Positions 38,703 to 43,457 of a DNA stretch of 64,000 nucleotides are shown here, piece after piece. Made by a program: the position numbers and the translations under genes. The notes beneath the pieces are model-generated. The model saw nothing but the letters and a program-made list of their open reading frames with translations, was not told where the DNA came from and ran no database searches. Origin of the DNA: an uncultured Alphaproteobacteria bacterium (GTDB lineage: Bacteria > Pseudomonadota > Alphaproteobacteria > GCA-2731375); assembly GCA_951812805.1 (NCBI GenBank), contig CATOSZ010000017.1, positions 1 to 64,000 of the forward strand, in the 5' to 3' direction. Every line of letters starts with the position of its first letter. Position 1 is the first letter of the stretch.

Positions 38703-39230
38703 TCATGGGATCCGTTCGTAGACGTTCAGGATGAACTCGGAAACGCCGCGACGGCGGACAAACCCGACGACGGGGTCGGAGAATTCGATCTGGCCGCGCA
38801 CCAGAACCGCAACGCGGGATTCCCGGAACCGGTCGGCACTGGTCGGCAGCCGACCCTCCGTCTGCTCCAGGGTCTGGATCGCTTCCAATCCCAGCACCGT
38901 CAGCTTGGCGTCGCGCGGGATCCGGGTCGCAATGTTTTCCAGCACACGATCGCGGTCATGGAACACCTGTTTTAGGAACGCCTGCATGCGGCCGTTGTCG
39001 AAGGTATAGGTCGCATAGAGGTCCTCGACGGCCTTGCGGACGATGCGCGGATCGACCGGCACCAGATCGGCGGGCGGAGCGGGGCGCGCAAGGGCGCCGG
39101 TCGAGGGCGTCGACGGGTTCGCGATCGCCCGCCGGCCACGAAACTCAGCCGACCAGGCGACGTTGGCGGCGCCGACGACCACCATCGTCGCCAGGGCGAT
39201 CGCGCATCGGAACGTGGGGGGAAAACTCAT
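38703..39230 (-). CDS. Exported protein of unknown function
   Basis: 175 residues with a signal peptide (CAIALATMVVVGAANVAWSA, cleavage near 28). A Pro/Ala-rich linker (TGALARPAPPADLVPVDP) leads to a mostly alpha/beta domain: VRKAVEDLYATYTFDNGRMQ, FLKQVFHDRDRVLENIAT and AVLVRGQIEFSDPVVGFVRR. I do not recognise it. It follows the large Gly/Thr-repeat protein on the same strand, four bases after that gene's stop, so the two are very likely one operon and may work together at the cell surface or in the periplasm. Confidence 0.7.
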   Translation of the reverse strand: MSFPPTFRCAIALATMVVVGAANVAWSAEFRGRRAIANPSTPSTGALARPAPPADLVPVDPRIVRKAVEDLYATYTFDNGRMQAFLKQVFHDRDRVLENIATRIPRDAKLTVLGLEAIQTLEQTEGRLPTSADRFRESRVAVLVRGQIEFSDPVVGFVRRRGVSEFILNVYERIP

Positions 39231-39234
39231 CGTC

Positions 39235-41097
39235 CTACCTCGCGAAGGGTTCGCCGCAGCTCCCGCCGCCGGTGTTCCGGCAGGTCAGGAGCACCTGGTT
39301 GTTTCCAGGCACGCTCAGGAAGGAGATCGAACAGGTATGACCGGGGGCGCCGAAAACGATCAGGTTGCTGCTCGTGGACGTGCCATTGCCGCCTCCGCTG
39401 TTGGGAAACGAAACCACGCCGTTCGGTCCCAAGGTCAGCGTCGTACCGGGGCCACTGGTCGACAGGATCGTACTGGAGAAGCCGCAGCCCCCGTTGCCGT
39501 TGAGCGGGCCGTTGAGGGCCCCGAAGCTGTTCGATGGCCCACCACCTGTGCCGCCGGTACCGCCCGTTCCGGTGCCGCCCGTCCCCGTGCCGCCTGTCCC
39601 TGTGCCGGTACCGCCTGTCCCTGTGCCGCCTGTCCCTGTGCCGCCTGTCCCTGTGCCGCCTGTCCCTGTGCCGGTACCGCCTGTCCCCGTCCCGGTGCCA
39701 CCGGTCCCCGTACCACCGGTTCCGGTTCCGGTGCCGCCCGTTCCGGTACCGCCGGTCGTCACCCGAGTGCCGCCGCGCTCGGCCTCCACCGGGTCGTAGC
39801 GTGGATCGAAGAAGTTGTCGCCCGTGCGGTGATGTACCTGTTCGACCTTGGTCGTCGTCAGAAGCCCGCTCAACAGTTCGCCGAGTGCCTTGGCATCCTT
39901 GGACAACAGGCACTCGTGCTCACACGCCAGCAAGCGACCGGTGGCGGCGGCCAGGATGGTTTCGGCCGACGCCTTGTGACGCCGCAGCTGGGCGAGAAAG
40001 GCGAGACGTGCCTGCTTGCGTCGTTCCTCCGCCGTCGGTTCGGTGGACGGAGGGGGGACGTAGGGATCGTACTGCTCCCATCCACTCATCTCCGTTCCGG
40101 CCTTGGGCGGACAAGCGCCGACCGACACGGCGAAGTCCGGCAGCATGACCGGCACGCCAAGCTCGGTCGCGATCGCCTTCCCGGCCGTTTGCCCACCCTT
40201 GACCGACGCCTGACTGCAAGTAATGAAGCTGAGCGTCGAGTCCGTGCACATGTAGCGCTTGAGCCTTCTAAGCGCCTTGATATTGGGCTTGTTGACCTTG
40301 CCGATAACGCCAGTACGAGACAGGCCACCGGTTACGGGATCGAAGTTGCGGCTATAGGAGCCATCGATCTGGACGTCGCCTATCGACACGACGCCGCTTG
40401 CAATCGATTTTTTGCTGCCGTCTGGCTGTATCTTATCTGAGAACTGGCCATGCTGATAAATTGTCAGATGACCAATGCAGTTGCCGCATTGCGCCGTTCG
40501 GTCGATCGGTGGAGGGACCTTGGTGTTGATGGTCGTCATCATATTCGCGAACGAGGAAAAGGTCTCGATGTCGTGGCTCCAGCGCCCCACGTTGCCGCTG
40601 TATATGGCGGCGCTTTCGTACCACTTCATCTTCTGGCCGGCTTCGCCCCTGTAGGTCATGCCGAGACGATACTTCGTCCCCCAGCCGAGCGGCTTGCCGT
40701 CGGGACAGGCATCCGGTTTCTCCGCGACTTTCGGGCCGCCGGCGTCCAGTTCCTCCAGTTCGCACGTGACCTCGGCGATGCGCTTGTTCAGTTCGGTGAT
40801 CCGGGTCCGGATCGTATTCACATGGTCGGCATCTTCCTGACAGGCCGGGCAGCGCGTTGTAATCGGCCGCAGCCTTTCATAGGGACATTCGCGCTTCTTG
40901 GGCGCCGCGATGACCTCGCCGACCTCGTCTTCGCGAACGTCGCCGAAGCTTTTGATGAGCCCGCCTTGCGCCGTGGCCTTCGAGGCGAAATTCGACGGAA
41001 CGATGCCGGCAACCCCTCCCGCCATCACGATGGCGACAACCAACAGCACAAATCGGAAAATACGTCGCGGTCGCGGCCGGTTCGCCATCCGCGTCAC
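39235..41097 (-). CDS. Large exported protein: Cys-rich His/Cys domain, Gly/Thr repeat, C-terminal beta domain
   Basis: 620 residues (M4 at 41088 is an alternative start). An RR-containing signal/anchor (RRIFRFVLLVVAIVMAGGVA, about 11-32) is followed by a Cys-rich part (CPYERLRPITTRCPACQ, 71-86) and a helix (90-115). Residues about 195-330 carry IGHLTIYQHGQFSD (His 216) and STLSFITCSQASVKGGQTAG (Cys 294) then LGVPVMLPDFAVSVG. The HG...C spacing and final Val-Gly strand recall DUF4347/CHAT-like caspase-fold domains. A Gly/Thr repeat (about 445-520) leads to a C-terminal domain with GGCGFSSTIL, GHTCSISFLSVPGNNQVLLT and two terminal Cys. Codon use is less GC-biased in the first two-thirds. Function unknown; the fold assignment is inference. 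Confidence 0.65.
   Translation of the reverse strand: MTRMANRPRPRRIFRFVLLVVAIVMAGGVAGIVPSNFASKATAQGGLIKSFGDVREDEVGEVIAAPKKRECPYERLRPITTRCPACQEDADHVNTIRTRITELNKRIAEVTCELEELDAGGPKVAEKPDACPDGKPLGWGTKYRLGMTYRGEAGQKMKWYESAAIYSGNVGRWSHDIETFSSFANMMTTINTKVPPPIDRTAQCGNCIGHLTIYQHGQFSDKIQPDGSKKSIASGVVSIGDVQIDGSYSRNFDPVTGGLSRTGVIGKVNKPNIKALRRLKRYMCTDSTLSFITCSQASVKGGQTAGKAIATELGVPVMLPDFAVSVGACPPKAGTEMSGWEQYDPYVPPPSTEPTAEERRKQARLAFLAQLRRHKASAETILAAATGRLLACEHECLLSKDAKALGELLSGLLTTTKVEQVHHRTGDNFFDPRYDPVEAERGGTRVTTGGTGTGGTGTGTGGTGTGGTGTGTGGTGTGTGGTGTGGTGTGGTGTGGTGTGTGGTGTGGTGTGGTGGTGGGPSNSFGALNGPLNGNGGCGFSSTILSTSGPGTTLTLGPNGVVSFPNSGGGNGTSTSSNLIVFGAPGHTCSISFLSVPGNNQVLLTCRNTGGGSCGEPFAR
39541..39757 (-). repeat. 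In-frame tandem repeat encoding Gly/Thr (GGTGT) units
   Basis: A cluster of near-identical short units on the plus strand, mainly CCTGTCCCTGTGCCG with spacers GTACCG, repeated several times. It encodes GGTGTG-type repeats in the large exported protein. The units are close enough in sequence for slippage to change the copy number. The purpose is probably a flexible, extended linker. Confidence 0.85.
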
Positions 41098-41170: not shown

Positions 41171-41989
41171 CTAACGCGCATGGAACAGCCGCTTTCCGCC
41201 GATCTCAAAACTCTCGATCGCCGCACGCCCGGCGGGTGAGAGCAACCAGTCGATAAAGCGTTGCCCGGCCACCGCCTTCACGTGGGGATGGCGCTCCGGG
41301 TCGACCAGGATCGCGGCGTAGGTATTGCGCAGCCGGCTGTCCCCCTCGGACAGCACAACGAGATTCCGGCGATTGCCGAAGCCGAGCCACGTCCCCCGGT
41401 CGGTCAGCGTATAGGCCCCCAGCGCCGCGGCCAGGTTCAAGGTCGCGCCCATGCCGGCCCCGAGTTCCCGGTACCAGAGGCCGGAAGCCTCCCCGGGGTC
41501 GACGCCGGCCTCGCGCCATAGCGCCTGCTCGCGCCTGTGGGTTCCGCTGTCGTCGCCGCGGCTGGCGAAGGGCGCGCGTGTCCGGGCGATGGCGCCCAGC
41601 GCCTGGACCACGTTCGCCTCCCCGGCGATTCCCGCCGGATCGTCCTTCGGGCCGACGAGCAGGAAATCGTTATGCATCACCTCGTGCCGTTGCCGCCCGA
41701 AGCCGGCGGCGACGAAGGCCTCCTCGCTCGCCCGGTGGTGCACGATCAGCACGTCCGCGTCGCCGTTCCGCGCCAGCCGCAGTGCGGCACCGGTGCCGAC
41801 GGCGACGACGCGCACGGCGATCCCGCTTTCCCGGGTGAAGCGCGGCAGGATGTGGTCGAACAGGCCCGAGTTCTGCGTCGACGTGGTCGAAGCCACGGTG
41901 ATGAACGGCGCGTCCGCCCGGGCACCGGCCACGACGAACGCGGACGATGCGGCCAGGAAGAGACGCCTGGATATCGCCGCCCCGATCAC
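41171..41989 (-). CDS. tupA: Tungstate ABC transporter substrate-binding protein, TupA-like
   Basis: 272 residues from GTG 41989, which overlaps the ATPase stop codon (GTGA); an ATG at 42031 would overlap by 46 bases. The signal region SRRLFLAASSAFVVAGARA suggests export, possibly Tat. The mature start has VASTTSTQNSGLFDHILP, the TTSTxxSGL oxyanion-binding motif of TupA. VVAVGTGAALRLARNGDADVLIVHH and FASRGDDSGTHRREQALW follow, as in TupA/ModA-type proteins. It likely binds tungstate or molybdate. First genes of the operon are the permease and ATPase upstream, which overlap. Confidence 0.9.
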   Translation of the reverse strand: MIGAAISRRLFLAASSAFVVAGARADAPFITVASTTSTQNSGLFDHILPRFTRESGIAVRVVAVGTGAALRLARNGDADVLIVHHRASEEAFVAAGFGRQRHEVMHNDFLLVGPKDDPAGIAGEANVVQALGAIARTRAPFASRGDDSGTHRREQALWREAGVDPGEASGLWYRELGAGMGATLNLAAALGAYTLTDRGTWLGFGNRRNLVVLSEGDSRLRNTYAAILVDPERHPHVKAVAGQRFIDWLLSPAGRAAIESFEIGGKRLFHAR

Positions 41990-42753
41990 CCCTCTTCGAT
42001 CCCGTCGTAGATCGAGCGCCGCCGCCACCACAACGGCTCGCCCGCGAGGAAGGCCCGGGCCAGGTCGTTCTCCGGCCCGGCGAAGAATTGCTCGGCCGGC
42101 GCCCGCTCCTTGATGCGCCCGCGATGAAGGAAGATTACCTCGTCAGCCAGGCGGCGGACCTGGTTCAGGTCGTGACAGGTCATTACCACCTTGATCCCCT
42201 CGCCGCAGGCCCGGTTGATCAACTCCTCCACCAAATGGCCCGCGGCGGGATCGAGGTTGGCGGTCGGCTCGTCCAGGAACAGCACGGCCGGGCGCAGCAC
42301 CAGCGCCCGGGCGAGCGCCAGGCGCTGCTGCTCACCGAAAGACAGCGCGCGGGCCGGCGCGTGGGCCAGGCGGGCAAGGCCGGTACGGTTGAGGATCTCG
42401 TCGATCCGCCGCTCACGCTCCGCTCCACCGACACCCCGGGCTCGGAGCGCGAAGGCCAGGTTCGCCCGGGCGGAACGGCGCAGCAACGTCGGGCGCTGGA
42501 AGACCATGGCCTGCGCCCGTCGGGCCGCGCCGGCGCCGGCGCCGTGCCAGCGCACCGTCCCCCGCTCCGGCGTGACGAGGCCGTGGGCGACCTTCAACAG
42601 CAGGCTTTTGCCAGCCCCGTTCGGGCCGATGATCAGGGTTCGCGACGGCTCGGCCGAAAGCGTGAGGTCGAGGTCCTTCAACACCCGCTTGCCGCCCCGC
42701 GTCAGCGAAACGCCGGCGAGTTCCAGCGGCAGAATATCGCCGACCCCGCTCAT
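41986..42753 (-). CDS. tupC: Tungstate ABC transporter ATP-binding protein, TupC-like
   Basis: 255 residues. Walker A IIGPNGAGKSLLLKVAHG, the Q-loop in MVFQRPTLLRRSA, the signature LSFGEQQRLALARAL (the usual LSGGQ reads LSFGEQ), and Walker B VLFLDEPTANLDP with the switch His in VVMTCHDLNQV are all present. The start at 42753 overlaps the permease gene by four bases. Together with the permease and binding protein this is a complete oxyanion importer at the inner membrane. Confidence 0.9.
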   Translation of the reverse strand: MSGVGDILPLELAGVSLTRGGKRVLKDLDLTLSAEPSRTLIIGPNGAGKSLLLKVAHGLVTPERGTVRWHGAGAGAARRAQAMVFQRPTLLRRSARANLAFALRARGVGGAERERRIDEILNRTGLARLAHAPARALSFGEQQRLALARALVLRPAVLFLDEPTANLDPAAGHLVEELINRACGEGIKVVMTCHDLNQVRRLADEVIFLHRGRIKERAPAEQFFAGPENDLARAFLAGEPLWWRRRSIYDGIEEG

Positions 42754-43457
42754 CCGCCGCGCCTCGCCTCGCCCAACTCCTTGGCGCCGTAAGCGGCGAT
42801 ATTGATCGCCAGCGACAGCCCGATCAGCACCAGGCCCAGCGCCAGGGCCAGCGACAGGTTGCCCTTGGAGACCTCGAGCGCGATCGCCGTCGTCATTACC
42901 CGGGTCACGTGATCGATGTTGCCACCGACGATCATCACCGCGCCGACCTCGGCGATCGCCCGCCCGAAACCGGCCAGCAACGCCGTCACCAGGGCGAAAC
43001 GCGCATCCCACAACAGGGCCGCCAGCGCCATCACCGGCGGCACGGCGAGGGAGCGGAAGGTCTCGCGATATTCCTCCCACAGGCTTTCGATCACCTGGCG
43101 GGCAAGCGAGGCGACGATCGGCACCACCAGCACCACCTGGGCGGCGATCATCGCGGCCGGCGTGAACAGCAGGCCCAGCACGCCGAGCGGCCCGGCGCGG
43201 GAGACCAGCAGATAGACCACCAGGCCGACGACGACTGGCGGCAGGCCCATCATCACGTTGAGGGCGACGATGGCGACCTTGCGTCCGGGAAAGCGTTGCA
43301 GCGCCAGCAGCGCGCCGAGCGGCAGCCCGATCAGCGCGGCGATCAGCACCGCGCTCAGGCTGACCTCGAGCGAGAGGCCGATGATCTCCAGCAACCGCGC
43401 GTCGCGCTCGACCAGCAGGGCCAGCGCTTGGGCGAAGGCCTGGCGAACCTCGTCCAT
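42750..43457 (-). CDS. tupB: Tungstate ABC transporter permease, TupB-like
   Basis: 235 residues, with about five to six membrane segments (such as VSLSAVLIAALIGLPLGALL and MMGLPPVVVGLVVYLLVS). The EAA-type loop is around ALLWDARFALVTALLAGFGRAIAEVGAVMIVGGNI, shared by TupB and related permeases. The GRAIAEVGAVMIVGGNI stretch is close to the family signature. It is first of three overlapping genes, tupB-tupC-tupA. The gene order and overlaps indicate a single operon. The prfC gene lies 16 bases upstream on the same strand. Confidence 0.9.
   Translation of the reverse strand: MDEVRQAFAQALALLVERDARLLEIIGLSLEVSLSAVLIAALIGLPLGALLALQRFPGRKVAIVALNVMMGLPPVVVGLVVYLLVSRAGPLGVLGLLFTPAAMIAAQVVLVVPIVASLARQVIESLWEEYRETFRSLAVPPVMALAALLWDARFALVTALLAGFGRAIAEVGAVMIVGGNIDHVTRVMTTAIALEVSKGNLSLALALGLVLIGLSLAINIAAYGAKELGEARRGG

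What the first reader, a model, noticed from the sequence alone, without database searches (positions are those of the whole stretch)
39235..41097. Exported protein joining a His/Cys caspase-like region to a Gly/Thr repeat
His 216 (YQHGQF) and Cys 294 (FITCSQASVKGG) with a following VPVMLPDFAVSVG strand resemble the dyad and core strands of clan CD/DUF4347-CHAT folds. This is combined with a Cys-rich N-terminus, an expandable (GGTGT)n linker and a separate C-terminal beta domain. The neighbour at 38703-39230 is also exported and unknown. The pair may be a surface or periplasmic protease, a toxin-like system, or an attachment structure. This is the strongest candidate for something undescribed in the window.
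Basis: inference. Interest (0 to 1): 0.62.

Follow-up and report, generated by a model that had tools for sequence, protein, structure and literature searches.

The report
Exported protease-like cargo, uncharacterised surface operon
The gene encodes an exported protein that carries a caspase-like (His/Cys) domain as the exchangeable payload of an unnamed, conserved gene set of Proteobacteria (payload protein, small exported partner, outer-membrane barrel), which may be an undescribed way of putting proteins on the bacterial surface.

Summary
In detail: 39235-41097(-) encodes an exported 620-aa protein (g39; likely ATG start at 41088) with His216, Cys294, a Gly/Thr linker and a C-terminal domain; exported g38 (38703-39230) follows 4 nt later. 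The clan-CD reading is supported, indirectly. Remote homologues keep the His, the Cys and further cysteines; a homologue's domain, modelled well, matches Tce1 (9QPE, a DUF4347 putative cysteine protease) at Z 10, then CHAT, legumain, caspase-7 and TcdB CPD at lower, partly background-level Z. The window's own domain modelled poorly and does not reach Pfam DUF4347.

The exported protein next to g38 usually has a GxNPF-like motif, a low-complexity linker and a terminal domain; g39 has all three. Cargo differs: kinase-like, HYR/GEVED or none recognised elsewhere, DUF4347-like here. The genome's second copy keeps both ends and the barrel, shows no caspase-like core, and is broken by an IS66-type element.

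Best reading: DUF4347-like cargo of an uncharacterised passenger/g38/barrel module, probably displayed or released at the surface. Export route and protease activity are inferred.

The parts
40969..41088 (-). signal peptide of g39 (residues 4-43), by eye
   Evidence: direct reading of the translation
40747..40851 (-). CPxC helical segment (residues 83-117), N-terminal module shared with the C4 paralogue; similar CxxC...CxxxC segments by eye in passengers of other loci
   Evidence: E 7.8e-9 with C4
40093..40620 (-). DUF4347-like / clan CD-like core (residues about 160-335)
40450..40452 (-). His216, invariant, aligns with the dyad His of Tce1
40216..40218 (-). Cys294, invariant, aligns with the dyad Cys of Tce1
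39781..39846 (-). passenger motif VEQVHHRTGDNFFDPRYDPVEA (residues 418-439), counterpart of VxxVxxxxGxNPF(D/N)xxDP in other passengers
39547..39768 (-). Gly/Thr-rich linker (residues 444-517), tandem array
39238..39540 (-). terminal Cys-containing, probably beta-rich domain (residues 520-620), 69% identical to C4, E 2e-8 to the passenger of L095
38703..39230 (-). g38: small exported protein, member of a Proteobacteria-wide family next to the barrel gene

Best explanation
g39 is the passenger of an uncharacterised three-part export module (passenger, g38, ~730-aa outer-membrane barrel). It enters the periplasm by a signal peptide (inferred from sequence). Its conserved C-terminal part (motif, Gly/Thr spacer, terminal domain) is the part that g38 and the barrel recognise, so that the middle domain is held at or released from the cell surface (inferred). 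In this copy the middle domain is a DUF4347-like, clan CD-type His/Cys cysteine peptidase domain (fold shown for a homologue, dyad conserved), probably braced by disulfides (inferred from conserved cysteines), which would either cleave extracellular proteins or cut the passenger itself (inferred). No barrel gene lies beside this copy; the single barrel gene of the genome, beside the disrupted second copy on C4, could serve it in trans (inferred).
For: Core: homologues conserve His, Cys, CGxC, MC and a later Cys; 0 of 3000 shuffles reach its score; homologues touch Pfam DUF4347 (best 1.8e-4) and the joint profile A1 matches true DUF4347 at prob 91; a homologue's model (pLDDT 75) has Tce1/9QPE as best match at Z 10.0, rmsd 3.4 over 144 residues, then SAVED-CHAT 6.8, legumain 5.7, caspase-7 5.3, TcdB CPD 5.2. 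The aligned H and C of chain 9qpe_G are 54 residues apart, as are the dyad His186 and Cys240 of Tce1 (PMC13323088). Module: 23 of 25 g38 loci hold the barrel gene in the fetched stretch, across Alphaproteobacteria and other proteobacterial classes. The two exceptions, the window and L090, are in genomes that have one barrel elsewhere. A motif profile built without g39 and C4 ranks as its top 16 of 2647 ORFs only proteins next to or near g38, with g39 among them. The g39 terminal domain matches the passenger of L095 at E 2e-8. Second copy with the same ends and order on C4. The barrel proteins are nearly Cys-free, with an excess of alternating strands over shuffles.
Against: The window domain modelled at pLDDT 42 and alone does not match DUF4347 (3.4 bits, 10 of 3000 shuffles as high; hhalign prob 0.7). 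The motif match of g39 alone is weak (E 2.5) and the profile comparison of its C-terminal part with six other passengers was not significant (prob 0.4). The barrel is inferred from composition and pattern, not from a family or structure match. No barrel beside this copy. No orthologue of g39 in 14 genomes of its family. In the g44 homologues the core sits in exported proteins without g38, so core and module are separable.
Confidence: 0.55

Rival explanations
1. g39 is a stand-alone periplasmic or secreted cysteine peptidase; the barrel has nothing to do with its export and g38 is a mere operon partner.
For: No barrel beside this copy; DUF4347-like cores occur in exported proteins without g38.
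Against: The g39 ends and g38 are shared with the C4 copy, which has the barrel next to it; g38 lies with the barrel in 23 of 25 loci.
Confidence: 0.2
2. The core is a catalytically dead clan CD-like fold used as a binding or adhesive domain, as may be the case for DUF4347 domains in large adhesins.
For: True DUF4347 hits lie in large proteins with cadherin, Ig, collagen and lectin domains; Tce1 itself is called a putative protease and did not markedly inhibit yeast growth (PMC13323088).
Against: His and Cys are among only six invariant columns over all aligned sequences.
Confidence: 0.2
3. The module builds a fibre or surface layer: passenger as subunit or tip, g38 as chaperone, barrel as assembly platform (usher-like in working, not by descent).
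For: Three-gene logic; passengers with HYR/GEVED domains and low-complexity spacers; a neighbouring SdrD_B protein at one locus.
Against: No Pfam usher or chaperone match for the barrel or g38; no repeat-subunit gene recognised.
Confidence: 0.15
4. The module is an antagonism or toxin-delivery system with exchangeable effector domains (protease-like, kinase-like, others).
For: Exchangeable middle domain between conserved ends within one genome; the nearest solved relative, Tce1, is a T6SS cargo; kinase-like domains in large proteins of the same operons.
Against: No immunity gene seen; no T6SS genes noted beside g39; the kinase-like proteins are separate genes of the operons, not the motif-bearing protein itself.
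Confidence: 0.1

Closest known systems
Tce1 (PA0256), DUF4347-domain cargo of the P. aeruginosa H3-T6SS, PDB 9QPE (PMC13323088)
   Same: Best fold match of the homologous domain (Z 10.0); same order and alignment of His and Cys.
   Different: g39 has a signal peptide, extra conserved cysteines, a linker and a terminal domain; Tce1 is loaded into an Hcp ring and not exported by a signal peptide (the latter from general knowledge of T6SS).
DUF4347 domains of large adhesin-like proteins (Pfam PF14252)
   Same: Profile-profile match of the g39 family (prob 91); shared HG and C...G...G pattern.
   Different: The window protein has no Pfam hit; extra CGxC, MC and later Cys; an insertion between His and Cys; no cadherin or Ig repeats.
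Clan CD peptidases (caspases, legumain, CHAT, TcdB/MARTX CPD, C11)
   Same: Fold of the homologue's domain and order of the dyad.
   Different: Sequence identity of 14% or less; Z 5 to 7, close to the background range the tool warns of; activity untested.
Two-partner secretion, autotransporters and chaperone-usher systems
   Same: Logic only: an exported passenger encoded next to an outer-membrane barrel.
   Different: No Pfam, NCBIfam or PDB sequence match of the barrel or g38 to any known family.

Membership tests
Pfam DUF4347 (PF14252) | score above the Pfam gathering cut-off (24.6 bits) | tested here: not met
   no hit for g39; homologues 14.9-16.1 bits
Pfam DUF4347 (PF14252) | homology at profile level with conserved His and Cys | tested here: met
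   (prob 91, E 1e-6, profile of g39 with homologues); the window sequence alone is not significant
Clan CD cysteine peptidases | caspase/haemoglobinase-type fold | tested here: inconclusive
   shown for the homologue L033; the model of the window domain is too poor
Clan CD cysteine peptidases | His before Cys, each after a core strand, conserved | tested here: met
   strands 55-65 and 102-113 of the model end at His65 and Cys113
Clan CD cysteine peptidases | peptidase activity lost in His or Cys mutants | not testable with these tools
   needs the bench
passenger/g38/barrel module (named here) | g38 homologue directly next to the passenger gene | tested here: met
   family
passenger/g38/barrel module (named here) | passenger ends with motif, low-complexity linker and terminal domain | tested here: met
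   terminal domain E 2e-8 to L095, motif rank 15 of 2647 ORFs; the profile comparison with six other passengers was not significant
passenger/g38/barrel module (named here) | barrel gene in the same locus | tested here: not met
   absent from the window; the only copy of the genome is on C4
Two-partner secretion / chaperone-usher | barrel matches the TpsB or usher families | tested here: not met
   no Pfam hit for one barrel, no NCBIfam hit for three, no PDB sequence hit for the profile
T6SS cargo effector | Hcp/VgrG association, no signal peptide | tested here: not met
   g39 has an N-terminal signal peptide by eye

The most novel reading that the evidence does not exclude
Passenger, g38 and barrel form an undescribed outer-membrane display or secretion system of Proteobacteria that carries exchangeable domains (caspase-like, adhesive, others), recognised by a conserved GxNPF motif, spacer and terminal domain.
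Probability: 0.35. Interest if true: 0.85.

Novelty: new variant of a known kind. Interest (0 to 1): 0.62.

Why it matters
If true, the window shows how a clan CD-type peptidase domain is mounted as cargo on an outer-membrane module that none of the searched family libraries names. The barrel, g38 and motif give a handle to collect all its cargo proteins, to ask what they act on, and to test directly whether this is a separate route to the bacterial surface.

Tried and rejected
Plasmid records by tblastn with g39, g38 and the barrel: no match. A viral-contig scan with the core: none confirmed. PADLOC and PHROGs: nothing of note. Fold search with the poor model of the window domain: matches uninformative, not used. 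The PDB sequence search with the joint profile names 9qpe first but only at E 0.28; used only for the position of the dyad. Profile comparison of the g39 C-terminal part with six alphaproteobacterial passengers: not significant. Orthology of the g39 N-terminal module with the large proteins of other operons: no significant sequence match beyond the C4 copy, so it rests on cysteine spacing by eye. Weak hits G008 280-360 and several low-scoring class hits were in unrelated enzymes or wrong frames. NTF2-like fold of g38: only a weak hint (3g0k, E 0.52). Ntox44-like reading of the C4 middle domain, recalled by eye: Pfam gave nothing for its two pieces searched apart. Literature searches for DUF4347, PF14252, PA0256 and a barrel-passenger system gave only T6SS papers and passing mentions.

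Full report
1. The observation. The ORF at 39235-41097(-) exists as described. His216 and Cys294 are at the stated residues. An AAGGAG lies 8 nt before the ATG at codon 4, so the start is probably 41088 and the product 617 aa. The N-terminus reads as a signal peptide (by eye). g38 starts 4 nt after the g39 stop and also has a signal peptide. The Gly/Thr linker is a tandem array at 39553-39753. Third-position GC of both genes is high, as in the neighbour, so both look coding. No family of Pfam, NCBIfam, PADLOC or PHROGs recognises either protein.

2. The core domain. A single-sequence search of 385 genomes of the class brought weak hits that proved real: exported proteins of genus g44 that end in a domain aligned to g39 residues 140-350. 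The same loci appear in named records (Rhizobium sp. Q54 MAG, an Alphaproteobacteria MAG and a MAG labelled Kuenenia). The alignment keeps His216, Cys294, CGxC, MC and a later Cys in all rows. A profile of the homologues without the window scores the g39 core at 41.2 bits; the best of 3000 shuffles reaches 8.3.

3. Relation to DUF4347 and clan CD. Five of six members of the alignment touch Pfam DUF4347, all but the window, best E 1.8e-4, below the cut-off as full proteins. The profile including g39 finds large proteins across the phylum; those scanned are true DUF4347 proteins, four of the five with further domains such as collagen, cadherin-like, Ig-like or lectin-like. hhalign of the two profiles gives prob 91, E 1e-6. 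In the joint alignment only six columns are invariant, His and Cys among them. The window sequence on its own does not match DUF4347 significantly, so the link is transitive. The homologue's domain modelled well (pLDDT 75, pTM 0.78); its best Foldseek match is 9QPE chain G, Tce1 (E 1.6e-3, prob 1.00), and VIA-align gives Z 10.0, rmsd 3.4 over 144 residues; SAVED-CHAT, Craspase CHAT, legumain, caspase-7, C11 and TcdB CPD follow at Z 5.2 to 6.8. Those lower values lie in the range that the tool calls common; that nearly all named rows are clan CD is what gives them weight. Tce1 is described as a putative cysteine protease with dyad His186/Cys240 (PMC13323088); the HMMER alignment puts its HG and its C, 54 residues apart, on ours. 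The model of the window domain itself failed (pLDDT 42), and its fold search is not used.

4. The genome's second copy. g38 has a 68% identical paralogue on contig C4. Around it (L053): an ORF with the g39 N-terminal module, an IS66-family transposase ORF, an ORF with the g39-type motif, linker and terminal domain, g38, then a 726-aa protein. The insertion has 23-bp inverted ends and an exact 8-bp duplication GTTCAAGA and a DDE_Tnp_IS66 domain. The gene is thus broken by an insertion; its pieces were searched apart and not joined. Its middle part shows no match to the g39 core. Both ends are conserved and the middle differs.

5. The module elsewhere. g38 homologues occur in three other alphaproteobacterial families, in the class of G655 (7 of 273 genomes) and in further proteobacterial groups. 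In 23 of 25 g38 loci examined the ~730-aa protein is encoded in the fetched stretch. This protein is conserved, nearly Cys-free, with an excess of alternating hydrophobic strands over shuffles in every row, and starts with a signal peptide; I read it as an outer-membrane beta-barrel, without support from Pfam (one member), NCBIfam (three members) or PDB sequences. The two g38 loci without it are the window and L090; both genomes have one barrel gene elsewhere.

6. The passenger signature. A 30-column motif profile was built from nine proteins next to g38 (VxxVxxxxGNNPF(D/N)xxDP), without g39 or C4. Searched against 2647 ORFs, its top 16 are proteins next to g38 or, for L090, near it; g39 is among them at E 2.5, individually weak. 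The g39 terminal domain matches the passenger terminal domain of L095, from another class, at E 2e-8, and reciprocally at 1.3e-7. A profile comparison with six alphaproteobacterial passengers was not significant, so the terminal domain either diverges fast or exists in several types. Large proteins in several alphaproteobacterial operons contain a kinase-like segment (DxKPxN; the best PDB sequence matches are nearly all protein kinases, best E 0.013); other passengers have HYR and GEVED domains or nothing recognised.

7. How it probably works. Shown: conserved dyad, clan CD fold of a homologue, gene order, shared ends. Inferred: export through the inner membrane by signal peptide, recognition of the C-terminal part by g38 and barrel, surface display or release, proteolysis, disulfides, service in trans by the C4 barrel. 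The best reading is a DUF4347-like payload on an uncharacterised outer-membrane module (0.55). Rivals are a stand-alone peptidase, a dead binding domain, a fibre-building system and an antagonism system.

8. Novelty. The domain is a divergent relative of a known family and fold. The module is not named in any searched library, and five searches of the open literature did not meet it; that is weak evidence of novelty, since most subscription papers are not held. I therefore rate the finding as a new variant of a known kind and state the new-system reading separately at 0.35.

Noticed in passing
L053:6803-8573 (G000:C4, about 94802-96572): IS66-family element of 1771 bp with 23-bp inverted ends and an exact 8-bp target duplication (GTTCAAGA) breaks the paralogous passenger gene.
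   Followed up: yes
L054:10563-13844, L061:468-3941, L062:1681-6507, L064:127-5349: Large exported proteins of the same operons carry a protein-kinase-like segment (e.g. RDFKPDN...ITDVD in L061), an unusual thing for exported bacterial proteins.
   Followed up: partly
L090 (G655:C6:68000-83000): A second g38 locus without a barrel in a genome that has one barrel elsewhere, as in the window's genome.
   Followed up: partly
L079:3137-4276 and L075:2-1093: FecR-domain protein between barrel and passenger at one locus, and an SdrD_B-type surface protein downstream of the barrel at another.
   Followed up: no
window 41171-43457: Substrate-binding, ATPase and permease genes that look like a tungstate-type ABC transporter directly upstream of g39, same strand.
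   Followed up: no
L032, L033 (records labelled Candidatus Kuenenia stuttgartiensis): Two homologues come from contigs of a MAG named Kuenenia, while identical sequences lie in a genome of the window's class: probably a mislabelled or contaminated record.
   Followed up: no
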